Part shown: in pieces, positions 16,066 to 59,849 of the stretch
How the letters are laid out: each line of letters starts with the position of its first letter
Position numbering within the stretch: position 1 is the stretch's first letter
Source of the DNA: Psychrobacillus sp. INOP01
GTDB lineage: Bacteria > Bacillota > Bacilli > Bacillales_A > Planococcaceae
Direction: 5' to 3'
Assembly (NCBI RefSeq): GCF_018140925.1
Contig: NZ_CP073315.1
Coordinates: 1,178,001 to 1,242,000 of the forward strand
DNA length: 64,000 nt
Translations under genes and position numbers: made by a program
Notes under the pieces: model-generated
Seen by the model: only the letters and a program-made list of their open reading frames with translations
What the model was told of the DNA's origin: nothing
Database searches by the model: none

Positions 16066-16617
16066 TTCTTTAAGATTAAAACCAGTTTCTATCATTTCCG
16101 AAGAGCTTTGAACAGACTTGTTGCTATATTATTACCGCGTGAATCTTTAGAGATGCTGGTTGGTCGTGACATCCGTCACAACCAACCAGCATCCTTTTTT
16201 CCCGTAATCTTATGGCGTTTGTCTATCCGTCGCCCTCCTATTCAATAAGTAAGCTCTCGAAGATGCAATTTCGTTAGCTATTTTGCTTCTTTATAAATCA
16301 AACACTTACTATTTCTCTTTATTTCCATTAGTAATAAAGAAAATCTACTTTCTTCCTTTATCATCGGATAATCGCATTTCTAATTCAAAAGCGATTACAA
16401 ATAATTTGAGCACTCTCTAAAATTTGAGCAATCTTATCATCTAAGCGATAAGCTATGCTAAATCTTATAGAGGAGTACTACACACTAATTGATTGCAGTG
16501 GAAGGTGGCAACTCCGGCAGGATTAGGGAGACAGATGAACCATCACAAGCGTACGCGGAGCGTCGGTGATGGTTCATCGCTCCCCCTGCGGAACGGGTCC
16601 ACCTGAAACGGAAATCA
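16066..16617 (+). repeat. Long structured intergenic repeat, copy A
   Basis: Non-coding element filling most of the 684-bp convergent gap after yfhP. Its parts run in the same order as in copies B-D. They are a 5' segment with CAGTTTCTATC and CCGAAGAGCTTT; a central hairpin (16152-16170 against 16175-16193, one C-A mismatch); GTAATCTTATGGCG; a shared AT-rich middle; and a GC-rich 3' module. The 3' module has a perfect 13-bp stem GATGAACCATCAC / GTGATGGTTCATC at 16534-16546 and 16566-16578. No reading frame is shared between copies. Confidence 0.9.
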
Positions 16618-16687
16618 TAGCACTATTCATTCTTTAAGTCCCATGAGCCAAGTATTCACGAAGCTTTTTTATACTTTCTATCTTTTA

Positions 16688-16720
16688 AGAAAAAACGCTA
16701 GGATGCATTTCCTAGCGTTT
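16688..16720 (-). terminator. Terminator of the recX-yfhH-yfhJ operon
   Basis: AAACGCTAGGA (16693-16703) pairs with TCCTAGCGTTT (16710-16720). The A run before it gives T on the minus strand. It abuts the yfhJ stop codon. Confidence 0.88.
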
Positions 16721-16986
16721 TAATTTATAAAGTCATCCGTTTCTAATAAATGCTTATACTTCTCGTTAGTGTTTGCAAATTCATGCAATTGTCCACCGTA
16801 GCCATCTATCCATTTTCGAATAACCATTTCCGTGACGGTTGCTCCTTTATAATCATAGCCTGCTCTTGCATAAGAGGATTCAAAGTCTGACCATAGAAGC
16901 TCTATCCACGCCCTTGCTTTTGCGGCGGATAATTTATCGTTTTTTTCAAGTAGTGCGAAAGTTAATTCATCTATTTTTGTTTGCAT
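16720..16986 (-). CDS. yfhJ: YfhJ family protein (WVELL family)
   Basis: A small 88-residue soluble protein of unknown function. The segment KARAWIELLWSDFESSYARAGYDYKG corresponds to the WVELL motif that names the family, with Ile replacing Val here. It is the last gene of the recX-yfhH-yfhJ unit, starting one base after the yfhH stop. The family is confined to Bacillales and usually sits in this position. No catalytic residues are recognisable. Confidence 0.82.
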   Translation of the reverse strand: MQTKIDELTFALLEKNDKLSAAKARAWIELLWSDFESSYARAGYDYKGATVTEMVIRKWIDGYGGQLHEFANTNEKYKHLLETDDFIN

Positions 16987-16987
16987 A

Positions 16988-17317
16988 TTATTTACCTTCC
17001 TCTAGAGATTCTAACATGGAAATAGGCAAGGCTTCCTCATATTTATCTCCGCCTAATCTATATCCCCATGCAAACCTTCCCTTTAAATATTCCACATGAA
17101 AGAATACACCTGGATCCCCAATAATACGATACATCTCTCCTGGTTTAATAGTAGCTGGATCTATCAGAAAGGCTTGTGCCATCAATGCTTTTCTTTCATA
17201 TACAGCATACTCATTTACTATACCCAGTTGCTCTGCTTTACGTGATTTTTCTTTCAGGTTCGCAATTTCTGTTCGTAGTTCCGGTACCGTCATATCACTA
17301 TATTTTTTTTCACTCAT
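16988..17317 (-). CDS. yfhH: YfhH family protein (DUF1811)
   Basis: A 109-residue cytoplasmic protein: a helical N-terminal half with a coiled-coil-like KEKSRKAEQLG stretch and a C-terminal beta domain (PGEMYRIIGDPG, FAWGYRLGG) typical of DUF1811. The start at 17317 overlaps the end of recX by 8 bp, implying coupled translation. The longer frame (13 extra codons) lies wholly in recX and is rejected. AAGGAG lies some distance upstream and GGAAGAG nearer. Function unknown. Confidence 0.82.
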   Translation of the reverse strand: MSEKKYSDMTVPELRTEIANLKEKSRKAEQLGIVNEYAVYERKALMAQAFLIDPATIKPGEMYRIIGDPGVFFHVEYLKGRFAWGYRLGGDKYEEALPISMLESLEEGK

Positions 17318-18122
17318 CTTGCTCTTCCAACTCCTTCTTTTCGATATAAAGATCAATTTGTTCAGCAGGGAATCCTTTTTGATACAATGCTGTCTTTATA
17401 CGCTTGCGCAAATCATTCCCTTTATATTTTGAGGCATGCTTCCGCCAAATTTTATCTCCCTGCGTAGCAATAATTTCAATCCATTCCTCCTCACTTTTTT
17501 CTAATTCAAAGGTGGAAAGGGCTTGGGAGATTATTGAAAAATTATATCCTTTTCTTTGGAGTGTATCTTGAACTTTTTGTTTAATTTGTCTTGGTGTTTT
17601 ATCTTGATTTTGATTGATGATCTTCTCTGCCAAAGTTTTCGCTATACCAACTTGCTCTTCTTCGGAATAGTTACCCAGCACTTCTTCTTGGAGGTCTTTT
17701 TCAATTCCCTTTTTCTTTAATTCCTGACGAATTGCAGCAGGTCCTTTTTTGCTGTTCTTCTTCTGAGTTTCAACTAAAGCCATTGTAAAACTTTCATCAT
17801 TAAGAAAGCCATACTCATATAGTTTTCGAATTGCTTCTAATATTACTGCTTCACCAAACTCATTTTGAAGAAGTTTTTGTTTTACCTCATGCTCACTTCT
17901 CATACGGTAGCTTAAAAAGTTAATTGCTTTATTAAACGCCTTCCTTACTTCATCATCAAAAACAATTTCATCTAATGTAAATGCCTCGATGACTTTTCCT
18001 TTGGATAATTGGTACTTAATCAGTACTGCTTCGTCTAAACTAAATGCATATTTTTCATCCAAATATAAATTATACCGCTCATTATTATTTTTTTGGCGAC
18101 CAATTCTTGTAATAACCGGCAT
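17310..18122 (-). CDS. recX: Recombination regulator RecX
   Basis: A 270-residue all-helical modulator of RecA filaments. The protein shows successive three-helix repeats, with the family marker LSYRMRSEHEVKQKL near residue 80 and further repeats of the YEYGFLND type. The start MPVITRIG matches B. subtilis RecX (MPYITKI) and has GGAGAG eight bases upstream; the ten-codon-longer frame is rejected. First gene of the recX-yfhH-yfhJ operon, divergent from yfhF. Confidence 0.92.
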   Translation of the reverse strand: MPVITRIGRQKNNNERYNLYLDEKYAFSLDEAVLIKYQLSKGKVIEAFTLDEIVFDDEVRKAFNKAINFLSYRMRSEHEVKQKLLQNEFGEAVILEAIRKLYEYGFLNDESFTMALVETQKKNSKKGPAAIRQELKKKGIEKDLQEEVLGNYSEEEQVGIAKTLAEKIINQNQDKTPRQIKQKVQDTLQRKGYNFSIISQALSTFELEKSEEEWIEIIATQGDKIWRKHASKYKGNDLRKRIKTALYQKGFPAEQIDLYIEKKELEEQDE

Positions 18123-18225
18123 GTATACTTCTCTCCATTCGTCTTTCTTCAATTATAACTTATAACTTGGTTGGTGATAAATGATTGAACTGTTATGATT
18201 ATTTTAAGAAGGAGGTTGGTGACAA

Positions 18226-19122
18226 ATGAAAATTGCAATTACTGGAGGAACTGGTTTCGTAGGAAGCGAACTTACAGATTTACTTTTGCAAAAAGGACAT
18301 GAAGTTTTTATATTATCTCGTTCAAAACAAGGTACAGAACGTGGCATAACTTATGTACAGTGGCTATCAGAAAATGCAAATCCCGAAAAACAGTTAGAAG
18401 GCGTTGATGCTTTTGTCAATCTAGCAGGTGAGTCTATAAATAATGGGCGATGGACGGAAAAGCAAAAACAAAAAATTTATGATAGTCGGATGAAAACGAC
18501 AGATGAAGTGCTCCGAATTTTACATACCTTAACTGTAAAGCCAAAAGTGCTAGTAAATGCGAGTGCAATTGGCATTTATCCACCCTCTAATAGCACAAGA
18601 TATACCGAGGAATCCAAAGTACTTGGAACGGACTTTTTGGCACGTACTGTTCGAGATTGGGAGATTAAAGCACAAAGTGCAGAAAAGCTTCAGATTCGTG
18701 TTGCTTGTGGCAGATTTGGCATTATTTTAGGAAAATCAGAAGGTGCACTCCCTTTAATGGCACTCCCGTATAAACTATTTGTTGGTGGACCTGTTGGAGC
18801 CGGTGAGAATTGGATGTCTTGGGTCCATGTTAAAGATGTTGCTGATGCCTTATTATTTGCGATAGAGCATCCTATTAATGGCCCCTTCAATGTGACTGCT
18901 CCTCACGCAAAAAAGATGAAGGATTTTGGAAAAACTTTAGCGACTATATTAAAAAGACCGCATTATTTTCCAGTTCCATCTTTTGCATTAAAGCTTGTAC
19001 TTGGAGAAAAAAGTCAGCTTGTTATAGAAGGCCAACATGTCATCCCACAGACGTTAATAGATGAAGGTTATTCTTTCCATTTCCCGAATTTGGAAAGTGC
19101 ATTACGAGATATTTACAAATGA
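18226..19122 (+). CDS. yfhF: TIGR01777 family NAD-dependent epimerase-like protein (YfhF)
   Basis: Extended SDR protein of 298 residues (SDR39U1 group). Rossmann motif GGTGFVGSEL at the N-terminus, NLAGESI and a C-terminal DUF1731-type end. In this group the catalytic Tyr-Lys pair is often missing; a region equivalent to IYPPSNS replaces it. The substrate is unknown. AAGGAGG precedes the ATG. Divergent from recX as in B. subtilis. It ends 51 bp before pdaA, at a hairpin. Confidence 0.88.
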   Translation: MKIAITGGTGFVGSELTDLLLQKGHEVFILSRSKQGTERGITYVQWLSENANPEKQLEGVDAFVNLAGESINNGRWTEKQKQKIYDSRMKTTDEVLRILHTLTVKPKVLVNASAIGIYPPSNSTRYTEESKVLGTDFLARTVRDWEIKAQSAEKLQIRVACGRFGIILGKSEGALPLMALPYKLFVGGPVGAGENWMSWVHVKDVADALLFAIEHPINGPFNVTAPHAKKMKDFGKTLATILKRPHYFPVPSFALKLVLGEKSQLVIEGQHVIPQTLIDEGYSFHFPNLESALRDIYK

Positions 19123-19140
19123 ATAACTAACTCTCATTGG

Positions 19141-19173
19141 CGCAACCTACTAAAAAAGAAAGGTTGCGTTTTT
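19141..19173 (+). terminator. Terminator-like hairpin abutting the pdaA start
   Basis: CGCAACCT (19141-19148) pairs with AGGTTGCG (19161-19168), and five T follow, immediately joined to the pdaA ATG at 19174. The right arm and loop carry GAAAGG, the only plausible pdaA ribosome site. The stem could both end yfhF transcripts and hide the pdaA site in read-through RNA. Confidence 0.7.
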
Positions 19174-19983
19174 ATGTGGAAATCTCATTTTGTAGGAATC
19201 GTTATTGCTACTATTATTTTAAGTATTGGATTAATGTATAAACCTTTCTCTGCACAAGCAGAGGAAATCCATTGGGGGTTAAAAAAAGCGACAAATGAGC
19301 AACAAGCAGAAGCAGGCGGAGAATTGGATGCTATGCTAAAGAAACATGGTGCAATATATAAAGGCTCTGCAGATAAAAAAATACTGTATTTTACATTCGA
19401 TAATGGCTATGAAAACGGCTATACCGAAAGTATTTTGGACACCCTAAAAGCGGAAGATATAAAAGCTACATTCTTTTTGACCGGCCATTATTTAGAAAGT
19501 GCAACCCCTCTAGTAAAACGAATGATTGCAGAGGGACATCAAATTGGCAACCACTCTTATGGGCACCCAAATTTAGCAAAGCTCTCAAAGGAAGGGGTTC
19601 AAAAAGAACTACAAAAGTTTGATACACGTTTAAGTGAATTAACTTCATTAACTCGAACAACAGTCACTCGCCCACCAGAAGGAATTTTTAATGAACAGGT
19701 ATTAGAGGCTGCTAATGACATTGGATATCAGCATATATTCTGGTCTGTAGCATTTATTGATTGGCATAAGGATCAGAAAAAAGGTGGCAAATATGCCTAT
19801 GATCAGTTAATGTCACAAATCCATCCTGGTGCCATTATATTAATGCATACCGTTTCTCCTGATAATGCAGAAGGGTTACCAATGTTCATCAAAGAGGCTA
19901 GAAAAATGGGGTATACATTTGGCACTCTAGACGAACTAGTCATAAATAATCTGGATATTCCGCTTACTTTGCTTCCTGAATAA
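19174..19983 (+). CDS. pdaA: Delta-lactam-biosynthetic de-N-acetylase PdaA
   Basis: Polysaccharide deacetylase that removes acetyl from N-acetylmuramic acid, needed for muramic delta-lactam of the spore cortex. 269 residues: a signal peptide ending near AQA, then NodB-domain motifs TFDNGYENG (catalytic Asp), GNHSYGHPN (metal-binding His pair), RPPEG and LMHTVS. Length and sequence match B. subtilis PdaA. It acts outside the inner forespore membrane, and its substrate requires prior stem-peptide removal by CwlD. Sporulation-specific expression is expected but no clear forespore promoter was found. Confidence 0.92.
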   Translation: MWKSHFVGIVIATIILSIGLMYKPFSAQAEEIHWGLKKATNEQQAEAGGELDAMLKKHGAIYKGSADKKILYFTFDNGYENGYTESILDTLKAEDIKATFFLTGHYLESATPLVKRMIAEGHQIGNHSYGHPNLAKLSKEGVQKELQKFDTRLSELTSLTRTTVTRPPEGIFNEQVLEAANDIGYQHIFWSVAFIDWHKDQKKGGKYAYDQLMSQIHPGAIILMHTVSPDNAEGLPMFIKEARKMGYTFGTLDELVINNLDIPLTLLPE

Positions 19984-20025
19984 ACTCCTTTATAATAGAA
20001 AGATGATTATAAAGGACGTGAAGGT

Positions 20026-21399: not shown

Positions 21400-21403
21400 A
21401 AAG

Positions 21404-21443
21404 AAGCTGTCGGAGATATGTAATTTATCCGGCAGCTTTTTTG
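21404..21443 (+). terminator. Terminator of rlmCD
   Basis: AGCTGTCGGA (21405-21414) pairs with TCCGGCAGCT (21428-21437) and six T follow; 5 bp after the stop codon. Confidence 0.88.
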
Positions 21444-21446
21444 GTT

Positions 21447-21899
21447 CTATAGCTTTAATGCTTCTCGATTCACCTTTTCCATAAATTCTTGGACCACTTT
21501 ATTATTACTTTTCTCACTACCAAGTTTCATCATTGCTCGTCCTACAAAATTTACTCCTTTATTTTGACCCTCGTAAATAAATTTTGTCTGATTGTCATCA
21601 ATATTATACAAAGTAAAACTAAACGTAATTTCAAACGCTTTCCCCAATACAAAGCTTATTTGTTTGTGCTTTTTATCTGGTCGGTCCTCATATGCCAATG
21701 TTTCCACGATATATGTCTCTACTCGCTTCCCTTCCCGGTAACTTTGTCTATGCTTCGCTCCTACCTCATTTTCCTGCTTTTCAATAAGAACGTGCTCCTC
21801 TACTTTGTCCATAATTTTATGAATGTTTTTATCCATAAATAAGCTCCATACTTTTTCGATGTTAACCTTTATTTCTAATTCTTCATTCCATTTAATCAT
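21447..21899 (-). CDS. SRPBCC (START-like) domain protein
   Basis: A 150-residue single-domain protein of the SRPBCC/polyketide-cyclase-like superfamily: an N-terminal beta strand with INIEKVWSLFMD, a long series of beta strands and a C-terminal helix with LGSEKSNNKVVQEFMEKV. Such domains bind hydrophobic ligands; no catalytic residues stand out. It overlaps the upstream MerR gene by four bases (ATGA), so it is the translationally coupled output of that regulator. Ligand unknown. Confidence 0.7.
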   Translation of the reverse strand: MIKWNEELEIKVNIEKVWSLFMDKNIHKIMDKVEEHVLIEKQENEVGAKHRQSYREGKRVETYIVETLAYEDRPDKKHKQISFVLGKAFEITFSFTLYNIDDNQTKFIYEGQNKGVNFVGRAMMKLGSEKSNNKVVQEFMEKVNREALKL

Positions 21900-22240: not shown

Positions 22241-22256
22241 TCTGCGCCTCCTTTTT

Positions 22257-22288
22257 ATTATAAACTGTGGGGTGCACCACAGAGTCAA
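22257..22288 (-). promoter_or_regulatory. MerR-type promoter with 20-bp spacer and dyad
   Basis: On the minus strand TTGACT (22288-22283) and TATAAT (22262-22257) are 20 bp apart, longer than the usual 17. The spacer holds the near-palindrome CTGTGGTGCACCCCACAG. This is the classic layout of MerR-activated promoters. The predicted start site lies close to the ribosome site of the regulator gene. Confidence 0.7.
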
Positions 22289-30605: not shown

Positions 30606-30662
30606 ATTAATTGAGTCAATTTCATAATTACTTGTTTCAATTTTTAAAAAAACGCTCTCGTT

Positions 30663-30786
30663 GATTGGAGTGAAAGGCGGCGACTCCAGCGGGAACAGTA
30701 GTAAGGCTAAGCCTCCTCGACTTGCATTTGCAAGTCGAGGAGGCTTAACTTCTGCCTGCGGAATGCGTCCGCTTGAAACGGAAATC
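30663..30786 (+). repeat. Short copy of the GC-rich 3' module of the long repeat
   Basis: Only the 3' module is present, from GATTGGAGTG to GGAAATCAAC, forming terminal inverted ends. Its interior is a perfect 18-bp stem (30708-30725 against 30730-30747, loop ATTT), different in sequence from the stems in the other copies. It lies between fumA and pfeT, both on the plus strand. Confidence 0.88.
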
Positions 30787-30840
30787 AACGTTATTCGGAT
30801 TTCACTATTTAGTAAGCTTTTATGAAATTAATTCATTCAG

Positions 30841-32886: not shown

Positions 32887-32918
32887 GTGAACTATGAAAA
32901 ACCGGAAAAAAAGCAGCC

Positions 32919-33515
32919 GATCCTTCTAGGTTAAAACCTGTTTCGATCGTTTCCGAAGTGCTTTGGACCGACGTTTTGCCATAGGATTACCGAGTGAATT
33001 TGTAGTGAGTATTGGTTGTGACAGCCGTCACAACCAATACTCACTTTTTCGGTAATCTTATGGCGGTTGCCTGTCCCTCGTCCTTCTACAACTATTAGAA
33101 ACAGGTTAGTGCGTTATTGGATAACTAGAGAAAAGATACTTTCCTATTAATAGGTAAGCGCCAGAAGATACAATTTCTGGCGCCATTTCGCTTCTTTAGT
33201 AGGTAAACACTCACTATTTCTCTTTATTTCCACTAGTAAAAGAAAATTGTCTGCTTTCCTCTATCATCGAAAAATAGTATTTCTACTTCATCAGCGATTA
33301 CCAATCATTTTATCCCTACATTTGCTTTGACTAATCTTATCATCTAAGCGACATGCTTCGCCAAATCTTATAGTGGAGTACTACCCGCTATTTGATTGGA
33401 GTGCAAGGTGGCGACTTCAGCGGGAACAGCGAGAAAGTCGAGACCCCGCAAGTAGCGTAGCGAACGAGGAGGCTAGACCTCGCCCGCGGAAAGCGTCCAC
33501 CTGGAACGGAAATCA
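32919..33515 (+). repeat. Long structured intergenic repeat, copy B
   Basis: Begins 33 bp after the pfeT stop in a 725-bp convergent gap. The central stem is perfect over 19 bp (33004-33022 against 33027-33045, loop AGCC), enclosed by ATTACCGA (32986-32993) pairing with TCGGTAAT (33049-33056). The shared CTTATGGCG, the AT-rich middle and the 3' module (about 33393-33515) follow. This copy's 3' module has only a weak internal stem (GCGAG / CTCGC). Confidence 0.9.
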
Positions 33516-33591
33516 CAGCATTATTCATTCTCTCAAGTTCCATGAGCCCTGTATTCACGGGACCCTTTTATATACCTTCTTAATCTTTATA

Positions 33592-41188: not shown

Positions 41189-42421
41189 ATGACATCTTTT
41201 AATACAAAATTAGAAAACTATGCTTCTCTTGTTGTAGAAGTAGGAGTGAATATTCAACCAGGTCAAAATTTATTTATCGCCGCTTCCACTGATAGCGTGG
41301 AATTAGTACGATTGATAACGAAAAAAGCATATGTAGCCGGCGCTAAACAAGTATTCGTAGATTTTACAGATGATGAGATTACTCGCTTACGCTATGAGCT
41401 TGCACCTGGGGACTCATTTGATTTCTTCCCTTCTTGGAAAGCTCAAGAAAAAGAATTATTAGCTGAAGGTGGCGCTGCATTTATTAGCGTTGTAAGCCAA
41501 AGCCCCGACCTTTTGAAAGGCATGGATTCTTCTAAAATCTCAGCGTTCCAAAAGGCTGCTGGTCAAGCATTAAGTAAATATCGTCAATATGTACAATCGG
41601 ATAAAATTAGTTGGTCAGTAATTGCATCTCCATCTACAGAATGGGCTAAAAAGGTATTCCCTAAATTACCAGAGGAGGAACAAGTACCTGCCCTATGGGA
41701 GGCAATCTTCCAAGCTGTTCGTGCGGATGTACCAAATCCAACACAAGCATGGATTGAACATGATAATCTTTTACATACAAAGGTAGATTATCTAAACGAA
41801 AAAAATTATAAAAAACTACATTATACAGCTCCTGGAACGGATTTAACGATCGAATTACCAAAAGGACATTTATGGTGTGGAGCTGGTAGCATAAACGAAA
41901 AAGGATTTTCTTTCATGGCTAACATGCCAACGGAGGAAGTATTCTCTGTCCCATTAAAAACGGGCGTCAACGGTTATGTAGCAAGTACGAAGCCATTAAG
42001 CTACGGTGGTAATATTATTGATAACTTCACTATCACATTTGAAAATGGACGTATTGTAAAAGTTGAGGCTGAACAAGGCAAAGAAGTGCTAGAAAACTTA
42101 GTTGCAACGGATGAAGGGTCTCATTATTTAGGTGAAGTAGCACTTGTCCCACATGACTCACCAATATCTAACTCTAATCTATTGTTTTACAACACATTAT
42201 TCGACGAAAATGCTTCTAATCACTTAGCAATTGGTAGTGCTTATGCTTTCTGTTTAGAAGGCGGCAAGAAAATGAGTAGAGAAGAACTAGCAGATAATGG
42301 TTTAAACGAAAGTATTACTCACGTAGATTTCATGATAGGTTCAGACAAAATGGATATCGATGGTATTAGAGAAGATGGAACTTCAGAGCCAATATTCCGT
42401 AATGGGAACTGGGCATTTTAA
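41189..42421 (+). CDS. M29 family aminopeptidase (AmpS-like), paralogue 1
   Basis: Metal-dependent aminopeptidase of 410 residues. The metal-ligand segments of M29 enzymes are present: MPTEEVFSVPLKTGVNGYV, GEVALVPHDSPI and SNHLAIGSAYAFCLEGGK, with HVDFMIGS near the end. It is clearly paralogous, over its whole length, to 53672-54904 in this window. Monocistronic; AAAGGAAG before the ATG. Confidence 0.88.
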   Translation: MTSFNTKLENYASLVVEVGVNIQPGQNLFIAASTDSVELVRLITKKAYVAGAKQVFVDFTDDEITRLRYELAPGDSFDFFPSWKAQEKELLAEGGAAFISVVSQSPDLLKGMDSSKISAFQKAAGQALSKYRQYVQSDKISWSVIASPSTEWAKKVFPKLPEEEQVPALWEAIFQAVRADVPNPTQAWIEHDNLLHTKVDYLNEKNYKKLHYTAPGTDLTIELPKGHLWCGAGSINEKGFSFMANMPTEEVFSVPLKTGVNGYVASTKPLSYGGNIIDNFTITFENGRIVKVEAEQGKEVLENLVATDEGSHYLGEVALVPHDSPISNSNLLFYNTLFDENASNHLAIGSAYAFCLEGGKKMSREELADNGLNESITHVDFMIGSDKMDIDGIREDGTSEPIFRNGNWAF

Positions 42422-43910: not shown

Positions 43911-43911
43911 A

Positions 43912-47744: not shown

Positions 47745-48473
47745 ATGTTTAAAATAATCCTTTTAATGTTATTTTTTATATCTACTGTAATCGTTAAATT
47801 ACTATCTACTTTACTACCCATAAATGGTCAAACTAGTGGCGAGATATTCAATAGACTTCCCGTCTTTTTTACTCCAGCAAATTATGTATTTTATATATGG
47901 ATTGTTATTTTTATATTATTAGCTTGGTGGATTTGGAATATTATGAAGGACTACAAATCTTCTCGTCCTATACCTACGAAGCGCATTCTATTATTTGGAG
48001 CATCCTCTATTTTATATATTTTGTGCATATTTAGTTGGCATTATGAGCAGTTTGTATATTCTTTTGTTACTCTCACCGTCTTATTAAGCTGTTTGTTCAT
48101 GCTTTATATAACTTATCCTTTAGATGATATAAATCGAAAGAAACGTTTGCCAATTTCCTTAATTTTAGGCTGGACATTTATCAGTTTCTTCACAAATCTA
48201 TCTTATCTCCTTACGTTTTATGAATTTGATGGATTTGGTATGACAAAATCTCTTTGGGGAGTTATCTTCTTAACCATTGCGACAGCCATAGCTCTTCATT
48301 TTCGGTATCATTATTTCGACCGTCTTATGTCTGTTGTTTTTATCTGGACTTTCATTGGAGTTGCAATTCAACACAACTTTAGTCAACTACTCCTAACCGC
48401 AGCCTCTCTTTTCTTAAGCTGTGTCCTGATTGTAGGGATTATATTCCTTAAGAAAAGTGCAAGACCCCTTTAA
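47745..48473 (+). CDS. TspO/MBR-like integral membrane protein
   Basis: A 242-residue protein with about seven hydrophobic helices. FTPANYVFYIWIVIFILLAWW is like the FTPAGYVFxIWGxIY motif of the tryptophan-rich sensory (TspO-related) family. It is longer than canonical TspO (about 160 aa), as in the Bacillus-type relatives. Ligand unknown. GAAGGAGG before the ATG. The long repeat copy C begins at its stop codon. Confidence 0.65.
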   Translation: MFKIILLMLFFISTVIVKLLSTLLPINGQTSGEIFNRLPVFFTPANYVFYIWIVIFILLAWWIWNIMKDYKSSRPIPTKRILLFGASSILYILCIFSWHYEQFVYSFVTLTVLLSCLFMLYITYPLDDINRKKRLPISLILGWTFISFFTNLSYLLTFYEFDGFGMTKSLWGVIFLTIATAIALHFRYHYFDRLMSVVFIWTFIGVAIQHNFSQLLLTAASLFLSCVLIVGIIFLKKSARPL

Positions 48474-49118
48474 GTTCAAAACCTATTTCTAGCGTTTTGA
48501 AGGGCTTTAGACAGACGTATTGCTAAATTATTACCGAGTGAATTTTTAGTGATATTGGTTGTGACATCCCTCACAACCAATATCACTTTTTTCGGTAATC
48601 TTATGGCGTTTGCCTGTCCGTCGCCCTCCTACAACGCATAGAAACAGGTAAATGCATTTTTGGATAACTAGAGAAAAGCTACTTTCCTATTTATAGAAGA
48701 AGCTCTCGAAGATGCAATTTCGTTCGCTACTTCGTTTCTTTATGAGTCAAACACTTACTATTTTTCTTTATTTCCACTAGTAAAAAGAAAGTCTGATTCC
48801 TTCATCCATCATGAAATAATAGCATTTCTAATTCAACAGTGATTACAAATGCTTTTTCCCTACATTAACTTGGACTAATCTTAATATCTAAGCGATATGC
48901 TTTGCCAAATCTAATTATGGGGACTACTCAAATAATTGATTGTAGTGCAAGGTGGCGACTCCAGTGGGAAAAGCGTTATGCGAAGACCCCGCAGCGAAGA
49001 CATTGGCCAAACTTTGTTTGGGTAATGTCTTTGCGACGAGTAATCGCAGGAGCATATGTTTTCCGAACGAGGAGGCTGAGGCAACGCCCATGGAAAGCGT
49101 AAACCTGAAACGGAAATC
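48467..49118 (+). repeat. Long structured intergenic repeat, copy C
   Basis: Starts at the stop codon of the upstream gene and fills the 747-bp convergent gap before mapB. The central stem is perfect over 17 bp (48548-48564 against 48571-48587), enclosed by ATTACCGA (48530-48537) and TCGGTAAT (48592-48599). The 3' module (about 48940-49118) is longest here. It has a near-perfect 19-bp stem at 48994-49012 and 49016-49034 plus a GCGACGAG / CGCAGGAGCA segment shared with 36971-37121. Confidence 0.9.
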
Positions 49119-49171
49119 AGCAGTATCTATGAACACTGGTTTCGCAGTATGATAATCCATATACTTAATTT

Positions 49172-49212
49172 TAAAAAACGCCTTCGAAAGAGTAAAATTT
49201 CGAAGGCGTTTT
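49172..49212 (-). terminator. Terminator of mapB
   Basis: Perfect 15-bp stem AAAACGCCTTCGAAA / TTTCGAAGGCGTTTT (49175-49189, 49198-49212), A run before it, 9 bp after the mapB stop. Confidence 0.92.
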
Positions 49213-49220: not shown

Positions 49221-49988
<768 letters not shown>

Positions 49989-50621: not shown

Positions 50622-50753
50622 AAAAAAACGACCCCTGGGATAGACCCAGACATCGCGCGATTGTCAGTTTCCATCCACATCCCTACGCAAGCATTAACTT
50701 ACAGGTTCGAAGGGTACTATCTCAGCCGCATCAGCGACGCCCCTTGTGGTTTG
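50622..50753 (-). promoter_or_regulatory. TPP (THI-box) riboswitch of thiT
   Basis: The aptamer spans about 50675-50750 on the minus strand. It has P1 (CCACA / TGTGG), GGGG, the CTGAGATAGTACCC core, GAACCTG and the ATGC-CGTAGGGA half that grips thiamine pyrophosphate. A terminator stem CTGGG / CCCAG (50622-50655) with seven T follows. Binding of TPP should favour the terminator and stop thiT. Confidence 0.93.
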
Positions 50754-50860
50754 AATTATTTAGTTCGAATTCATTGTAGCTGAATAGAATAAGTAATGCA
50801 ACCTTCTTTTGTTCATTTGTTATACTTGTAAAAATACTATATGCAAAAGGGGATGTATAC

Positions 50861-51951: not shown

Positions 51952-52147
51952 AGTGAAACTTCCATCAGTGGGATTTTCTTCAGCCCCACTGATTGTTAGT
52001 TGAACCTTTCGGGCTTTTACGGGCTATTTAATCTTATTTTATGAAGCTTTGACAAAACGTAAGTAGGAATTCTGCGACGTACGGGCCGTACAAGTGCCGA
52101 TGTTGCCACAGGACGTGGCGACTTTAATCTGCCCTCCCGTTAATGCG
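51952..52147 (+). repeat. Second-family modular repeat, copy 2
   Basis: Starts 26 bp after the M20 stop with AGTGAAACTTCCATCA and ends CCCGTTAATGCG, as in 43912-44145. It has the module GCCACAGGACGTGGC (52105-52119) and its own stem ATCAGTGGG / CCCACTGAT (51964-51972, 51985-51993). The middle differs from copy 1. Confidence 0.75.
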
Positions 52148-52685: not shown

Positions 52686-52686
52686 G

Positions 52687-53658: not shown

Positions 53659-53671
53659 GCCTATCAACTCC

Positions 53672-54904
53672 TTAAAAAGCCCAAGTACCTTTTATGAATA
53701 TTGGCTGCATCGTTCCATCCGCTAGTTCACCCATAATATCCATCTCTCCGCTACCAATCATAAAGTCTTCATGAACAATAGATGTGTTAATACCCAGATC
53801 CTCTAATTCACTATGAGTCAAGCCTCGAGCACCCTCTACACAAGTAGGATATGCTTCTCCAATAGCGAAATGATTAGAAGCATTTTCATCAAATAACGTA
53901 TTAAAGAATAATACATTCGAAGCAGAAATAGGTGACTCATGCGGTACTAAAGCAATCTCTCCTAAATATTTTGCTCCTTCATCTGTTCCAATTAGTTCTT
54001 GTAAAAGTTTCTCACCAGTTCCAGCTGTAATAGAAGTAATCTTGCCATTTTCAAAGGTCAAGGTAAAATCATCTATTACATTTCCTTGATAGACGAATGG
54101 CTTCGTATTTTTCACATAACCATTCACACCTGTTTTAAGTGGTGCAGTATATACTTCTTCAGTTGGCATATTCGCTATGAACGGAACATTTTGACCGTTT
54201 TTACTTGATCCTGACAACCAAATATGTTCTTTCGGAAGTTCGACTTGAATATCTGTTCCTTCCGCTTTATAGTGCAGCTTCTTGAAGCGCTTATTATTTA
54301 GTAGTGCCGCTCTACTCTCAAGGTTATCAATATGTTCTTTCCATTTTTGAACTGCTGTTCCTTCCCCGATTCGCACAACTTGGAATATCAACTCCCAAAG
54401 TGCTTGCATTTGTTCCTCAGGCTTCAGGTTTGGAAATACCTTGGCAGCCCATTTTTCTGAAGGCATTGCAACGATTGACCATGTAATAACATCATTCATC
54501 ACTGCTTTACGATAGTTCTCTAACGCTTTGCCACTTGCCTTTTGAAAGCTTGAAATACGATCAATCGAAACACCTTCTAATAGGTCTGGGTTATCCGCAT
54601 CAATCCATAGTAATGCACCTTTATTGTCGATTAACTCATCACGCTGCTTAGCAGCCCATTTAGGAAATTCCTGGAAGGCTTCATCTGGAGCAAAATCATA
54701 AAATGCACGTGCGTTTACTTCATCTGTATAGTTTACGTCTACTCGTTTAGCACCTGCTTCATATGCCTTTTTCACAATTAAACGTGTAAATTCAATTGTG
54801 TCAGTCGTCGTATTTATAAGAAGTGGTTGGTTAGGCTGGATGTTCAGACCAACTTTTACTACTAATTCGGCATACTCTTCAAGCTTTTGTTGAAAATCCA
54901 TCAT
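53672..54904 (-). CDS. ampS: M29 family aminopeptidase (AmpS-like), paralogue 2
   Basis: A 410-residue metal-dependent aminopeptidase, the same length as paralogue 1 at 41189-42421 and similar throughout (for example MPTEEVYTAPLKTGVNGYV, GEIALVPHESPI, HFAIGEAYPTCVEG). Its start overlaps the yfmL stop by one base (TAATG), so it belongs to a yfmL-ampS-GDSL unit. Which copy corresponds to B. subtilis AmpS cannot be told without alignment. Confidence 0.87.
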   Translation of the reverse strand: MMDFQQKLEEYAELVVKVGLNIQPNQPLLINTTTDTIEFTRLIVKKAYEAGAKRVDVNYTDEVNARAFYDFAPDEAFQEFPKWAAKQRDELIDNKGALLWIDADNPDLLEGVSIDRISSFQKASGKALENYRKAVMNDVITWSIVAMPSEKWAAKVFPNLKPEEQMQALWELIFQVVRIGEGTAVQKWKEHIDNLESRAALLNNKRFKKLHYKAEGTDIQVELPKEHIWLSGSSKNGQNVPFIANMPTEEVYTAPLKTGVNGYVKNTKPFVYQGNVIDDFTLTFENGKITSITAGTGEKLLQELIGTDEGAKYLGEIALVPHESPISASNVLFFNTLFDENASNHFAIGEAYPTCVEGARGLTHSELEDLGINTSIVHEDFMIGSGEMDIMGELADGTMQPIFIKGTWAF

Positions 54905-56055
54905 TATTTCCCCTTTTGACTGATAGTTTTGGATGATCCTTCGATTAATTCACCACGGTACCATACTTTTTGAACTGGTTTTTTAGGAAGCTCTTTTGTC
55001 CATTTTTTAAAGGTCTTTTCATCGGCATAAGTTAATAATGTCATTACCTCACCATCTGCCCCCGCACGACCAGTACGTCCCGAACGATGTAGATACTGTT
55101 CAACTGAATGTGGTACATCTACATGGATAACATGAGTAAGCCCAGAAATATCTAAGCCTCTTGCTGCCACATCTGTAGCAATTAGTAAACTGACCTTACC
55201 GCTTTTAAAATCATCCAATGCTTTCTTTCGTTCGTCTTTTTTCATTTCAGAATGAAGAGAAACAATTGGTGCATCTCTGTATGCAAGTTTTGCATCCTTC
55301 ATTAATAGCTGATCTAGACTATTTACAAACGCAAGTCCTCGCATGCCTTTTAAATAAGAGATTTTACGTAGTAATTCGGTTTTATCACGAGGTTCTGTCT
55401 TCACAAAACTGTGTACAACTTCACCTTGCGAAGGAACATCCTCTGCTGATACCTGAATGCGCACAGGATTCTTCATCATACGTTCCGCAACTAATTCTAT
55501 TTCTTCTGTAATTGTTGCAGAAGTTACAATCAGCTGACTTTCCACAGTTGCGTCGACTAGACTTTTCACGGTTGTACGATGCTCTCTGCTTAGGAGTTGG
55601 TCTCCTTCGTCTAGAACAACGATGTTTATTTCATGCATTTTTAGTTTTTTAGTTTTCACTAGCTCTTGTAATCTACCTGGAGTTCCAACGACAATTGTCG
55701 GCTTCTTTTTAAGCACATCAATCTGTCTGTTAATATTTGCTCCACCGATCAATTGGGCAACTGAGATGTTTGTATCTTTCACCCATTCACGGAATACCTC
55801 CACAATTTGCATACCAAGTTCTTGAGAAGGAATGATTACCATAGCCTGTATTTGTTTCTTAGTCGGATCAACTTTCTGCAGGATTGGAAGTACGTAAGCA
55901 AGTGTTTTTCCAGTTCCTGTTGGAGATTCTGCCACTACGTCGGAGCCATCCAACATATGTGGGATTAATTTGGATTGTATCGGCATTGGAGAAGCAAAAT
56001 TTGCGTCTCCCCATTTTTTTTGTAATGATTCATTTAAATTAGTTATAAAAGTCAA
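54904..56055 (-). CDS. yfmL: DEAD-box-type RNA helicase (YfmL-like)
   Basis: ATP-dependent RNA helicase of 383 residues. Motifs in order: PMPIQ (Q), SPTGTGKT (I), GTPGRLQEL, VLDEGDQLL (II, DEGD instead of DEAD), SAT (III), ATDVAARGLDI and HRSGRTGRAG (VI). B. subtilis YfmL, linked to ribosome assembly in the cold, is similar and has DETD. Start is TTG at 56055 with GAGGTGG eight bases upstream; the 28-codon upstream extension is rejected. Confidence 0.88.
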   Translation of the reverse strand: MTFITNLNESLQKKWGDANFASPMPIQSKLIPHMLDGSDVVAESPTGTGKTLAYVLPILQKVDPTKKQIQAMVIIPSQELGMQIVEVFREWVKDTNISVAQLIGGANINRQIDVLKKKPTIVVGTPGRLQELVKTKKLKMHEINIVVLDEGDQLLSREHRTTVKSLVDATVESQLIVTSATITEEIELVAERMMKNPVRIQVSAEDVPSQGEVVHSFVKTEPRDKTELLRKISYLKGMRGLAFVNSLDQLLMKDAKLAYRDAPIVSLHSEMKKDERKKALDDFKSGKVSLLIATDVAARGLDISGLTHVIHVDVPHSVEQYLHRSGRTGRAGADGEVMTLLTYADEKTFKKWTKELPKKPVQKVWYRGELIEGSSKTISQKGK

Positions 56056-56148
56056 GTTTGTTTCCACCTCATCTGTATTTGAGTCAAGTGTACCATATTT
56101 TTTATATCGACTAATATTTATAGATAATAGATAGGACATACTTTTTTT

Positions 56149-56181
56149 CTCAAAAAAAGTGCCCTATAGAAAAGGCACTTA
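56149..56181 (-). terminator. Terminator at the end of the FbpA-like gene
   Basis: AAGTGCC and GGCACTT form a 7-9 bp stem with an AT loop; seven T on the minus strand. The stem begins in the stop codon of the small gene. Confidence 0.8.
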
Positions 56182-56337
56182 TCTACTTTCATCTTCAGTT
56201 GTATATTCCTTCATTAATTCATAAAAATTTAACTCATATAATTGTCTTCCATCAATTTTATATACGCCTTTGTTCACAAACTCTTCGATAATATCATCAC
56301 GTTTTTGCTCAGTTTTTGATTCTTTAATTTTCATCAT
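56179..56337 (-). CDS. Fur-regulated basic protein (FbpA-like), 52 aa
   Basis: A 52-residue peptide with the pattern IIEEFVNKGVYKIDGRQLYELNFYELMKEY, which resembles the FbpA family of small basic proteins that help iron-sparing RNA act in Bacillus. AAGGAG is nine bases before two consecutive ATG. I saw no Fur box nearby; it lies 48 bp after the VanZ gene and is likely read from that operon. The family call is from pattern memory. Confidence 0.6.
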   Translation of the reverse strand: MMKIKESKTEQKRDDIIEEFVNKGVYKIDGRQLYELNFYELMKEYTTEDESR

Positions 56338-56385
56338 GTTTAAAATCTCCTTGCAATATTAATACTCTCCTATGTCTACCCATTC

Positions 56386-56961
56386 TTAGTTTTCATAAAC
56401 TTTTTTAAAAGCAGCTGTAAATGCTGGGAAAGCTTTTCGAATAAAGTAATAGCACACATAGCCAAGAAATGCCCCAAGCGTATTCAGCCATAAATCATCG
56501 ACGTCACTGCTTCTGCTTTGCGGAATCTGCATAATTTCAATAAATAAAGATAGACACAATCCAGCAAATACTGGGAATATAAAAAGCTCCATCTTTTTAA
56601 ATAGTAAAGGTAGAAGAAACCCAATTGGCATGAATAGAATAATATTACCAAGAAAGTTAATATAGAATGGTTGCCAAAATCCTAGATATACAATGGCATT
56701 ATATGTTTCTTCTACCACACGAAATAATTCTAAATTAACGCCGGTGGTATAGGCTGGCACTTCACCTGGTTTAGGTATTATTGTTTGAGAAAATAGACCA
56801 ACAAGTACAGAGAAAAAGACTAAAATTCCGAGCTCATGTAATATCTCTTTTAGCTGAAATCCTCTCTTCTTCCAACGATACAGTCGCCAAATAACAATCA
56901 ATGGAAATGCAATCCCTATAAAAAATAACATATCATCTAAATAATTTATGATTACATACAT
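56386..56961 (-). CDS. VanZ family membrane protein
   Basis: A 191-residue protein with about five helices. The VanZ hallmark is the pattern NFLGNIILFMPIGFLLPLLF followed by EIMQIPQSRSSDVDDLWLNTLGAFLGY. VanZ in enterococci gives low teicoplanin resistance, but most chromosomal homologues have no known role. The start codon directly follows the stop of the AAA ATPase gene. Confidence 0.85.
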   Translation of the reverse strand: MYVIINYLDDMLFFIGIAFPLIVIWRLYRWKKRGFQLKEILHELGILVFFSVLVGLFSQTIIPKPGEVPAYTTGVNLELFRVVEETYNAIVYLGFWQPFYINFLGNIILFMPIGFLLPLLFKKMELFIFPVFAGLCLSLFIEIMQIPQSRSSDVDDLWLNTLGAFLGYVCYYFIRKAFPAFTAAFKKVYEN

Positions 56962-57696
56962 TTACTCACCTTCAAATATCTCTTCTAAAAATTTTTCCCG
57001 ATTGTCTAAAAAATATTTTGTAATTTGATAATGCCCTGTCATTTCATAGTCGATTTCCTCAATCTCTCCTTCATCAAAACTTAGGATGGTCGCTTCTGGG
57101 TACCCTAAAATTATGGGAGAGTGTGTCGCAATGATAAATTGGCAATTCTGTTCCTTGATCAAATCATGCATGATTCGTAAAAATGCCAATTGTCTCTGTG
57201 GTGATAATGCTGCTTCCGGCTCATCTAAAAGATAAATAGCCTGTCCATTAAAACGATTTAGAAACAAAGATAGAAAAGACTCTCCGTGTGATTGCTCGTG
57301 AAGGGATTTTCCACCATAACTATCTAGTACACCTCGGTTAGGATTTTCTCTTTCCTGTTCATCAATATGTGAAGCAAATTGATAAAAGGATTCTGCCCGT
57401 AAAAAGAAACCATTCATTACTTTTGGCATCCAGGAAAGTCTTAGATATTTCCCCAATGCACTTTCTGCAGCATCCACATCATATAAATTATTCCGACTTC
57501 CACCTGCTGTATTAAATTCACATTTATCTGCAATTCCTTCTAATAAAGTCGATTTCCCAGTCCCATTCTCTCCTACAAAAAAAGTTACAGGAGAGGTTAG
57601 CTCTAGCTCTCTAAAGTTACTAATTGTTGGAATCGTGAATGGATAATGACTTTCCAATTGTGGCTCTTTGAAAAGGGTCACTCTATTTAAAAACAT
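56962..57696 (-). CDS. AAA family ATPase (RecF/ABC-like, COG3910 type)
   Basis: A 244-residue soluble ATPase with Walker A GENGTGKSTLL, signature-like HEQSHGESFLSLF, Walker B AIYLLDEPEAALSP and switch His in ATHSPIIL. It is like the predicted ATPases related to RecF/SMC that act in the cytoplasm without a membrane partner. Function unknown. It is co-transcribed with VanZ (no gap) and divergent from the DUF3298 gene. Confidence 0.85.
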   Translation of the reverse strand: MFLNRVTLFKEPQLESHYPFTIPTISNFRELELTSPVTFFVGENGTGKSTLLEGIADKCEFNTAGGSRNNLYDVDAAESALGKYLRLSWMPKVMNGFFLRAESFYQFASHIDEQERENPNRGVLDSYGGKSLHEQSHGESFLSLFLNRFNGQAIYLLDEPEAALSPQRQLAFLRIMHDLIKEQNCQFIIATHSPIILGYPEATILSFDEGEIEEIDYEMTGHYQITKYFLDNREKFLEEIFEGE

Positions 57697-57750
57697 ATGA
57701 TTCCTCTCCCACTCATATTATTTATTATTACTTAAGAAAGGTTGTTTGCC

Positions 57751-58359
57751 TTGGATCTTCCTGTTCGTATAGAAACGAAATATATTAGGAAAAGTTCACC
57801 AAAGATTAACGTTTATTATCCTATTGTAACTAACTTACCTCATCCTGCAGTTGAAAAAAAGATAAATGCAGATATTATTCATGAACTGAACAAGCTTTTG
57901 ATCGAACAAGGATTTTACAGTGAGCATTTAGTAGAAATGGTCGGTACTTATGAGATCAAAACAAATGAGCGTGGTGTTCTAAGCTTAAGTTTAACTGTCT
58001 ATTCATTTACAGGAGGTGCGCACGGTCTTACAATTACGAAATCACTCACCTTCGACGTCAAGACAGGCAAGCAGTATGCACTAAGTGAACTGTTTAAGCC
58101 GGATAGTAATTATGTGAAAGTACTCTCTGAAATGATTGAAAAGAAAATGGTAGAGTGGGATGTGCCTCTATTAGAGGGTTTTACACAAATACGTAGTGAC
58201 CAAGACTTTTACATAGCCGATCACTCACTTGTCATATATTTTCAAGTGTATGAATTGACTCCATACGTGTACGGCTTCCCTTACTTTCCAATTATCATCA
58301 AAGATATAGAAGGAATTATTCGGGAAGGTGGAATTCTAGAAAAAATGATTCCTTTCTAG
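57751..58359 (+). CDS. DUF3298/DUF4163 domain protein
   Basis: A 202-residue protein combining the DUF4163-like N-terminal strand region and the DUF3298 C-terminal domain (SFTGGAHGLTITKSLTFDVKTGKQYALSELF). Such domains are found on RsiV and PdaC, where they sit outside the membrane; here there is no signal peptide or helix, which is unusual. The start is TTG at 57751, nine bases after AAAGG; a TTG nine bases upstream is too close to the ribosome site. Ligand unknown. Confidence 0.75.
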   Translation: MDLPVRIETKYIRKSSPKINVYYPIVTNLPHPAVEKKINADIIHELNKLLIEQGFYSEHLVEMVGTYEIKTNERGVLSLSLTVYSFTGGAHGLTITKSLTFDVKTGKQYALSELFKPDSNYVKVLSEMIEKKMVEWDVPLLEGFTQIRSDQDFYIADHSLVIYFQVYELTPYVYGFPYFPIIIKDIEGIIREGGILEKMIPF

Positions 58360-58419
58360 TGACACGGACTCTTTAGTACGGTAAAGTATTAAGTAAATAC
58401 GTGCTGGAGGTTACAAGGT

Positions 58420-59199
58420 ATGAAAAAAGCAATTTTTTTTGACTTAGATGATACTTTACTATGGGACAATAAAAGTGTGTCCGTTGCGTTTCACAAAACA
58501 TGTGCATTTGCTGCAACACATGTTAACATCGATCCACTTGAATTAGAACAAGCCGTACGTGCAGAAGCAAGTGCATTGTACGATACATATGAAACACGCA
58601 CATTCACTCAAATGATCGGTATTAATCCCTTTGAAGGATTATGGGGAACATTTGACGACCCTTCTGAGGATTTTCAAAAAATGAAAGTCATCGTACCAGA
58701 GTATCAACAATTAGCATGGACAAAGGGATTAGAGAAGCTAGGGATTGTTAATGAAGAATTAGGTAGAAAGTTAGCAGAATATTTTCCGAAAATGCGAAAA
58801 GAAAGCCCCTTTGTATATGAAGAAACCTATGAAGTGTTAGATCAATTAAAAGGAAAGTATACATTGCTATTAATGACAAATGGCTCGCCAAGTCTTCAAA
58901 ACATTAAATTGGAAATCACACCGGAGATTGCCACATACTTTGACCATATACTTATCTCTGGAGCATTTGGTAAAGGTAAGCCTGATCCATCCATCTTTGA
59001 GCATGCACTAGAAATTGTCGGAATGACGGCAGATGACGTATTGATGGTCGGTGATAATCTAATGACCGACATATTAGGCTCCTCTAAGGTCGGTATGCAA
59101 TCCGTGTGGATCAATCGCGAAGAAAAACCTGTTAGTGAAGAAGTAACGCCTACGTACACAATTGAGAACTTAAAAGAACTATTGACGCTGCTTGCATAA
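58420..59199 (+). CDS. HAD-family phosphatase (YsaA-like)
   Basis: A 259-residue haloacid dehalogenase-type hydrolase. Motif I FDLDDTLLW, motif II LLMTNGSP, motif III Lys in GKGKPDPSIF, motif IV MVGDNLMTDILGS. A long cap domain lies in residues 15-120. It resembles B. subtilis YsaA, a HAD enzyme able to act as phosphoserine phosphatase. Convergent with serA across one copy of the long repeat, which makes serine synthesis an attractive but unproven role. TGGAGG precedes the ATG. Confidence 0.8.
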   Translation: MKKAIFFDLDDTLLWDNKSVSVAFHKTCAFAATHVNIDPLELEQAVRAEASALYDTYETRTFTQMIGINPFEGLWGTFDDPSEDFQKMKVIVPEYQQLAWTKGLEKLGIVNEELGRKLAEYFPKMRKESPFVYEETYEVLDQLKGKYTLLLMTNGSPSLQNIKLEITPEIATYFDHILISGAFGKGKPDPSIFEHALEIVGMTADDVLMVGDNLMTDILGSSKVGMQSVWINREEKPVSEEVTPTYTIENLKELLTLLA

Positions 59200-59209
59200 G
59201 AAAAGCGTA

Positions 59210-59849
59210 AGGACTCTTTAAAGTAAAAACCTGTTTCTATCGTTTTCGGTTAGCTTTGAGCAGACTTAATGCAATATTATTAACCGGCTAATTTTTGAAG
59301 GGGTGGTCGTGACTAACGTCACGACCACCCCTTCTTTTTCCGGTAATCTTAATTATGGCATTTATCTGTCCGTCGCACTTCAACAACTTTTCGAAACAGG
59401 CTAATGCTTTTTTGGATAACTAGAGAAACGATGCTTTCCTACTCATAGAGGAAGCTCTCGAAGATACAATTTCGTTCGCTACTTCATTTCTTTAATTAGT
59501 AAACACTAACTATTTCTCATAATTTCCATAAGAAAAAAGAAAATATACTTTCTTCAACCTTCCTTACAGTATCCCTAATTCAACAGCCGGTCTTATCACT
59601 ACATTAACTTTGACTACTTATCATCTTAGCGATAGCCTATGCTCTATCTTTTAGTGGAGTACTACTCACTTAATTTTGATTGGAGTGAAAGGTGGCGACT
59701 CCAGTGGGATGAGTGAGACAGATGAGATATCACAGAGACGGTGATAGCTCATCGCTCACCCCACGGAGGCCAACAGGATGTTGGTCACGAAGGCGTTGCC
59801 ACACGAGGTGGCGCACTTAGCCTTTGTACCCCACCTGTAACGGAAATCA
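59210..59849 (+). repeat. Long structured intergenic repeat, copy D
   Basis: Starts 10 bp after the HAD gene stop in the convergent gap before serA. The central stem is perfect over 17 bp (59297-59313 against 59318-59334, loop TAAC), GC-richer than in copies A-C, and enclosed by TTAACCGG and CCGGTAA. The 3' module (about 59677-59849) has a stem GATGAG-A-TATCAC / GTGATA-G-CTCATC. It also holds the GCCACACGAGGTGGC module (59798-59812) found in the second repeat family. Confidence 0.9.

What the first reader, a model, noticed from the sequence alone, without database searches (positions are those of the whole stretch)
16066..59849. Four long structured repeats, all in convergent gaps and all in one orientation
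Copies at 16066-16617, 32919-33515, 48467-49118 and 59210-59849 share the same order of segments over about 550-650 bp. Each begins within about 35 bp of the stop codon of a plus-strand gene (one overlaps it). Each is followed by a minus-strand gene with its own terminator. All four lie on the plus strand. No protein frame is conserved. A repeat that recurs every 10-15 kb in exactly this context suggests a functional 3'-end or boundary element, or a mobile element with strong target and orientation bias. I know of similar GC-rich modules in Bacillales but not of a description of the whole unit.
Basis: partly seen in the sequence, partly recalled or inferred. Interest (0 to 1): 0.75.

Follow-up and report, generated by a model that had tools for sequence, protein, structure and literature searches.

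The report
Mobile repeats sitting behind transcription terminators
The four repeats are copies of a small mobile DNA element, found at 61 or more places as full or partial copies in this Psychrobacillus genome, that sits in one orientation right behind the stop signal (terminator) of a gene and has a folded, RNA-like core shared with related genera.

Summary
The four copies are real and belong to a family with at least 61 places, full or partial, in this genome (merged in 14). They should be read on the minus strand: then a strong terminator hairpin ends 5-18 nt before the start in 42 of 55 starts, against 2 of 97 control windows behind other genes, and the gene upstream is co-oriented in 67 of 69 chained copies. 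Convergence is not the rule: 36 of 69. Of 19 loci comparable with a relative, 12 hold element there, 6 none, 1 is unclear. The core covaries as a hairpin; a covariance model finds it in 36 of 250 family genomes: the 19 Psychrobacillus, 9 of a genus taken as Sporosarcina, 7 of a third genus, one borderline. In Sporosarcina it forms two-armed, mostly 700-730-bp MITEs with 19-bp inverted ends and 9-bp target duplications. Best reading: a non-autonomous mobile element whose Psychrobacillus form is one-armed, shows no target duplication and occupies terminators, as group IIC introns do. Mobilising enzyme, transcription and host function are unknown. New variant of a known kind (bcr1/BOX/MITE-like repeats).

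The parts
16038..16686 (-). Element copy 1, full; in minus-strand sense it follows the terminator of the minus gene ending at about 16720 and runs towards the plus gene 15055-16035
   Evidence: Profile hits 2-181 and 235-628; hairpin ends 11 nt before the start motif; partial copy at the same place in G004
32894..33590 (-). Element copy 2, full
   Evidence: Profile hit 2-628; empty in G004, full in G008 at the same gap
48449..49172 (-). Element copy 3, full; overlaps the end of plus gene 47745-48473 by about 25 bp
   Evidence: Profile hit 3-622; no profile match in this gap in 16 of 19 genus genomes, fragments in G008 and G014
59200..59881 (-). Element copy 4, full; begins one base past the stop of plus gene 58420-59199
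   Evidence: Profile hit 2-619; in G004 the terminator's T-run joins the far flank directly and a CG-rich array lies on the gene side of the terminator
59770..59836 (-). Rfam Bacillaceae-1 module inside copy 4
   Evidence: cmscan 65.1 bits, gathering 35
59297..59334 (.). Top stem of the core hairpin in copy 4 (terminator-like when read on plus)
33004..33045 (.). Top stem of the core hairpin in copy 2 (terminator-like when read on plus)
48548..48587 (.). Top stem of the core hairpin in copy 3 (terminator-like when read on plus)
49175..49212 (-). Terminator of the minus gene 49221-49970 behind which copy 3 lies
12905..13070 (-). GC-rich module alone (5' domain of the element in minus sense), also present in G004
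   Evidence: Profile 460-622
30614..30839 (-). GC-rich module alone, an insertion that G004 lacks
   Evidence: Profile 480-621

Best explanation
The repeats are copies of one non-autonomous mobile element of about 650-720 bp. In its own sense (minus strand in this window) it runs: start motif AAAGATAAGAAAGTATATAAAAATG, a small hairpin, a GC-rich module, an A-rich stretch, a hairpin with the conserved loop GAAATTGYATCTTC, a covarying core hairpin of about 170 nt, and an end that reads as a terminator (..GCCCGGTTTTTCTTA) or a short variant of it. SHOWN: most copies lie directly behind intrinsic terminators and downstream of co-oriented genes; sites differ between species; the core structure covaries and is shared with the Sporosarcina group, where it forms inverted-repeat MITEs with 9-bp target duplications. 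INFERRED: the Psychrobacillus form is a one-armed relative moved in trans by an unknown enzyme that recognises terminator structure or the T-run, which fixes the orientation; this keeps insertions harmless, and the terminator at its own end makes a new landing site (tandem partial copies fit this). The core hairpin probably serves the element (enzyme binding, or blocking transcription that enters from the far side), not the neighbouring genes.
For: At least 61 places in the genome. Upstream gene co-oriented in 67 of 69, in 29 of 35 copies in four other Psychrobacillus genomes, and in 8 of 8 loci of the third genus with a called upstream gene (10 loci given, 2 without a call). Strong terminator ending 5-18 nt before the start in 42 of 55, against 2 of 97 windows behind genes without the element, 4 of 590 random windows and 1 of 275 shuffles. 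No element in G004 at copies 2, 3, 4 and three more of 19 comparable loci; copy 3 has no match in 16 of 19 genus genomes. In the other direction, a G004 copy (2282206-2282516) lies in DNA that aligns on both sides to L087, where this genome has no match. Covariation: 81.8% of cells paired against 33-48% when slid, 121 two-sided cells against 17-39. Core in 36 of 250 family genomes. Sporosarcina-group form with 19-bp TIR and 9-bp duplications: mean 6.28 of 9 matches in 25 units, 15 with 7 or more, against 3.12 for shuffled pairing. Four of four group II intron loci looked at in this genus start right behind a terminator and T-run, judged by eye.
Against: No mobilising enzyme found: no group II maturase match in this genome; its only RVT_1 match looks like a retron (by recall); no transposase with matching ends in the 12 stretches picked from TIR hits, judged by eye on frames of 130 aa or more with one frame sent to Pfam. 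No target duplication in Psychrobacillus (24 copies). 12 of 19 loci comparable with G004 share the element, so much of the set is old; median identity between full copies is 71.5% on filtered columns. Fragments of copy 3 in G008 and G014 with empty sites in nearer relatives need loss or exchange as well as gain. 13 of 55 starts lack a strong terminator (2 lack any call). In four other Psychrobacillus genomes only 17 of 35 copies gave both the start motif and some terminator call, and 9 of these were strong and near. 6 of those 35 had an upstream gene in the other direction (gene calls are simple and may miss short genes).
Confidence: 0.74

Rival explanations
1. A host-serving 3'-end or boundary RNA: the element stabilises the mRNA or insulates transcription at the end of its gene, and its position is kept by selection rather than set by insertion.
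For: Fixed orientation behind gene ends; conserved structure with covariation; in copies 2, 3 and 4 the core reads as a terminator on the strand of the opposing gene; 12 of 19 loci shared with G004.
Against: A terminator already precedes the element in 42 of 55 starts, so it is usually beyond the transcript end; no promoter-like site at a common place in the four copies by a sigma-70 scan; copies are absent in relatives that keep the gene; about half of the copies are not in convergent gaps; many are internally deleted.
Confidence: 0.13
2. Insertion is random, and the pattern behind terminators is what survives selection against inserts in genes, promoters and operons.
For: Gene-end gaps are the most tolerant places; a passage of PMC3049150 explains the pneumococcal repeats in this way.
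Against: Tolerance alone does not set a 5-18 nt spacing or one orientation (42 of 55 against 2 of 97; 67 of 69).
Confidence: 0.08
3. The element is a passenger of group IIC intron machinery: the intron protein or a group II-like reverse transcriptase inserts it behind terminators.
For: Same site class and orientation as four intron loci of this genus; no target duplication seen here.
Against: No group II maturase match in this genome, and matches in only 13 of 19 genus genomes although all 19 carry the element; no Rfam intron match in the window or in 8 element loci from this and three other Psychrobacillus genomes; the Sporosarcina-group relatives carry transposon-type ends.
Confidence: 0.1

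Closest known systems
bcr1-bcr18 repeats of the Bacillus cereus group (Okstad 2004; Kristoffersen 2011; seen only through passages of PMC3446304)
   Same: Intergenic, partly structured, high-copy repeats of one bacilli clade, some likened to MITEs; in two strains 84 of 165 and 62 of 155 were part of an mRNA.
   Different: No sequence link was tested. One-orientation residence behind terminators and a core shared by three genera are not mentioned in the passages read.
Pneumococcal BOX, RUP and SPRITE (PMC3049150, passages incl. part of the abstract)
   Same: Modular structured repeats; SPRITE is terminator-like and enriched close to gene 3' ends; repeats insert into one another.
   Different: Here the element lies behind another terminator with a fixed orientation to it; such targeting is not described in the passages read.
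Group IIC (bacterial class C) introns (PMC8919778 and PMC3240598, passages)
   Same: Insert immediately behind rho-independent terminators; four intron loci of this genus do so.
   Different: The element has no Rfam intron match and no reverse transcriptase frame.
MITEs in general (review PMC10969869, passages)
   Same: Sporosarcina-group form: no gene, 19-bp TIR, 9-bp duplication, palindromic arms.
   Different: Psychrobacillus form: one arm, no comparable TIR, no duplication.
Rfam Bacillaceae-1 RNA RF01690 (named in a table of PMC2864571)
   Same: 12 of 14 matches in 20 stretches around elements lie inside copies (overlap by my coordinate check), as does one of two in the window.
   Different: It spans about a tenth of the element; the core hairpin matches no Rfam family.

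Membership tests
MITE | Short, no transposase gene, many copies | tested here: met
   25 full copies, no frame beyond chance; at least 61 places
MITE | Terminal inverted repeats | tested here: inconclusive
   Sporosarcina group: 19 bp at both ends. Psychrobacillus: only a short TAAGAAA-like similarity by eye
MITE | Target site duplication | tested here: not met
   Psychrobacillus: no clear excess at any offset in 24 copies. Sporosarcina group: met, 9 bp, 15 of 25 with at least 7 matches
MITE | Parent IS with the same ends | tested here: inconclusive
   Not seen in 12 stretches picked from TIR hits; one IS1595-type transposase nearby has other ends
Group IIC intron | Sits immediately behind an intrinsic terminator in the same orientation | tested here: met
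   42 of 55 strong; orientation to the upstream gene 67 of 69
Group IIC intron | Domain V and intron core | tested here: not met
   No Rfam intron match in the window or in 8 element loci; introns of the genus do match
Group IIC intron | Encoded reverse transcriptase/maturase, or one in the genome | tested here: not met
   No frame beyond chance in the element; no PF08388 match in the own genome
bcr1-type repeat | Sequence relation to bcr1-bcr18 | not tested
   Original paper not held
Conserved structured RNA | Covariation beyond controls | tested here: met
   strand preference for G-U pairs weak (68 against 36 cells; per column 18 against 11, p 0.26)
Conserved structured RNA | Transcribed | not testable with these tools
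   No RNA-seq; a sigma-70 scan gives no site at a common place

The most novel reading that the evidence does not exclude
A bacterial SINE-like element: its transcript ends in its own terminator, the 3' U-run pairs with the A-run of another terminator where a nick primes copying by a reverse transcriptase in trans, so insertions land behind a terminator T-run, in the same orientation, with no target duplication beyond the T-run itself. A variant: a DNA circle closed at the T-run recombines with terminator T-runs.
Probability: 0.09. Interest if true: 0.9.

Novelty: new variant of a known kind. Interest (0 to 1): 0.62.

Why it matters
Class C group II introns and a few related intron types are the documented elements that land right behind intrinsic terminators (PMC8919778, passages). 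A small gene-less element with the same habit, in dozens of copies and with a covarying core shared by three genera, would be a second case from which the recognised feature (hairpin, T-run, paused polymerase or ssDNA) can be worked out. It also explains part of the intergenic DNA of these genomes, puts Rfam's Bacillaceae-1 'sRNA' into a mobile context, and points to a natural gene-neutral insertion address.

Tried and rejected
Convergent-gap rule: rejected (36 of 69). Replication-strand rule: weak; 61 of 70 copies against 319 of 426 genes, p 0.023, probably explained by gene orientation. Protein-coding element: rejected. tRNA genes: none in the window or in four loci. Known RNA family for the whole unit: none. 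Retron as mobiliser: no profile match to the element near the only RVT_1 gene. Autonomous Sporosarcina-group parent: not seen in 12 stretches; an IS1595-type gene has its own ends; two wider-spaced core pairs in G256 held no obvious transposase, judged by eye. Target duplication in Psychrobacillus: none clear. Literature: ten searches of open-licence PMC papers listed no paper that describes this element, judged from the titles and abstract starts shown; most subscription papers are not held.

Rows dropped or choices made: 7 of 62 motif starts were removed by eye as not being element starts (57 of all 62 had some terminator call). In one search a start counted only if a fuzzy downstream motif was present. 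In one search, opposite-strand profile hits overlapping better ones were dropped; some of the 70 'main' chains are fragments or second modules of one copy; one had no gene on one side. The alignment holds 32 of the 84 core stretches found; the model was built from 27 of those 32. Of 12 G004 copies, 4 had both flanks in the stretches fetched here, 7 neither, 1 a flank that does not reach the site; this is not proof of absence. Not every g3 genome matched the model (G020 and G062 had none).
Full report
1. Is the observation there? Yes. Direct repeats and the alignment show four copies in one order of segments. Their neighbours are as described: a plus gene ends near one end (in copy 3 it is overlapped), a minus gene with its own terminator faces the other. 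In the whole genome (one contig, 4,301,978 bp) three DNA searches merge into 61 places; this is a lower bound because each search scored only 40 candidates. Chaining an iterated profile of about 630 positions over the fetched stretches gives 70 copies or fragments plus 7 lone GC-rich modules. A short-pattern search for one end led to further, often decayed, copies.

2. Which strand, and what context? GC skew of the fetched stretches puts the origin near 2.1 Mb and the terminus near the contig start. Read on the other strand, the element follows a co-oriented gene. The far side is convergent in 36 and co-directional in 31.

3. The landing site. In this sense the element starts with the motif (A)AAAGATAAGAAAGTATATAAAAATG. 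Of 62 motif starts, 57 had some terminator call within 60 nt. After I removed 7 that are not element starts, 53 of 55 had some call and 42 a strong one, the hairpin ending 5-18 nt before the motif. The same detector gave 2 of 97 in random windows within 110 nt behind genes without the element (48 of these 97 have a strong terminator somewhere in the 110 nt), 4 of 590 random windows and 1 of 275 shuffles. The terminators differ from copy to copy, so they are host sequence. Four group II intron loci of the genus begin with GTGCG directly behind such terminators; papers describe that habit for class C introns and a few related types (PMC8919778, PMC3240598, passages).

4. Is it mobile? For copy 3, the gap in 19 genus genomes holds the full element only in this genome, fragments of what looks like the same insert in G008 and G014, and no profile match in 16. 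For copy 2 it is full here and in G008; G004, G005 and G014 hold an empty site; two contigs end too early to tell (L143, L149) and several others hold a fragment, GC-module matches or unrelated sequence. Against G004 (flanks 88-98% identical) 19 loci were comparable: 12 hold some part of the element, often with different internal deletions; 6 hold none (copies 2, 3, 4 and L080, L090, L099); one is unclear (L110). Of 12 G004 element stretches, 4 had both flanks in the stretches fetched here, 7 neither and 1 an uninformative flank; one of the four holds a second G004 copy (2282206-2282516) where this genome has no match. In copies 2-4 both junctions fall at or next to the T-run of the terminator, read by eye in A/T-rich sequence; L090 fits on the gene side only. 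No target duplication is detectable (24 copies). Partial copies in tandem fit landing behind the element's own terminal hairpin.

5. The core. In 32 copies from six genomes (chosen from 84) RNAalifold predicts 45 pairs, 18 with two-sided changes. A structure set by hand from one copy gives 81.8% paired cells against 33-48% when slid, and 121 two-sided cells against 17-39; 500 shuffles never reach either value. A second hairpin keeps the loop GAAATTGYATCTTC while its stem changes. G-U exceeds A-C in the minus sense (68 to 36 cells) but not clearly per column (18 to 11, p 0.26), so the strand of an RNA is only hinted. A sigma-70 scan finds no site at a common place.

6. Relatives. A DNA search finds the element in 19 of 19 genus genomes and none of 42 others. 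The genus is Psychrobacillus: an exact core pattern hits only P. soli among the named genomes shown (records near the own genome may be left out), and G010 of the same genus has the 4,332,095-bp chromosome printed for strain PB01 in PMC9728334 (passages). A covariance model of the core reaches further: 36 of 250 family genomes, namely 19 Psychrobacillus, 9 of genus g3, 7 of g11 and one borderline of g14; some g3 genomes have none. G228 of g3 has the 4,674,191-bp chromosome printed for Sporosarcina psychrophila in PMC10818898 (passages), so g3 is taken as Sporosarcina. There many cores come as outward-facing pairs within palindromic units (14 of 25 are 696-732 bp) with ends CACGTCTGTTGATTAACCA and a 9-bp duplication: mean 6.28 of 9 matches in 25 units, shuffled pairing 3.12 (largest of 2000 shuffles 4.24), a peak only at length 9. 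In the third genus several copies stand in tandem in one direction; the upstream gene is co-oriented in 8 of 8 loci with a called gene, 2 of 10 without. In four other Psychrobacillus genomes it is co-oriented in 29 of 35.

7. Mechanism. Shown: site, orientation, species differences, covarying core, transposon-type relatives. Inferred: movement in trans, and recognition of terminator structure. The enzyme is not known. Group II machinery is not supported for this genome (no PF08388 match; 13 of 19 genus genomes have one). Its one RVT_1 gene looks like a retron to me by recall of such loci. I therefore hold 'mobile, terminator-directed, non-autonomous' at 0.74 and leave the chemistry open; the SINE-like reading in the section on the most novel reading is the boldest that fits.

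8. Known or new? Structured interspersed repeats are a known kind (bcr, BOX, RUP, SPRITE; passages). Ten searches of open-licence papers listed no description of this element (calls named in Tried and rejected). The new points are the residence behind terminators in one orientation, and a core shared between a one-armed and a two-armed form. Rfam's Bacillaceae-1 motif is one of its modules: 12 of 14 matches in 20 stretches lie inside copies by my coordinate check, though these stretches were chosen around elements.

Noticed in passing
window 30614-30839: Lone GC-rich module as a ~226-bp insertion absent in G004, with approximate 16-bp inverted ends (TGA..AATTTCATAA) by eye; looks like a separate MITE family that also forms a domain of the large element.
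   Followed up: partly
window 52078-52143 (-): A second Bacillaceae-1 RNA match outside any element copy.
   Followed up: no
G004:C1:3169442-3170149 (L170) and G004:C1:3062999-3063925 (L191): At the copy 4 place G004 has a CG-rich tandem array between gene and terminator; at the L080 place a CTCTCGTATAG-type array lies behind the terminator. Gene-end gaps hold several repeat kinds.
   Followed up: partly
window 48449-48473: Copy 3 overlaps the end of the plus gene 47745-48473; in G004, G005 and G007 (no element) the protein aligns only to residue 238 of 242, in G008 and G014 (fragments) to 242 and 240.
   Followed up: partly
G000:C1:1470459-1471028 (-), L240: Retron-like reverse transcriptase (by recall) next to an ATPase-like gene; the only RVT_1 match of the genome.
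   Followed up: partly
window 61637-61870 (-), 50663-50754 (-): T-box leader and TPP riboswitch (ordinary).
   Followed up: no
window 42090-42261 and 53832-54003: 172-nt inverted pair, 70% complementary, inside two ~410-aa frames on opposite strands, probably paralogues.
   Followed up: no
L221 (G000:C1:3503130 and 3507369): Two element copies facing each other, starts about 4 kb apart.
   Followed up: no
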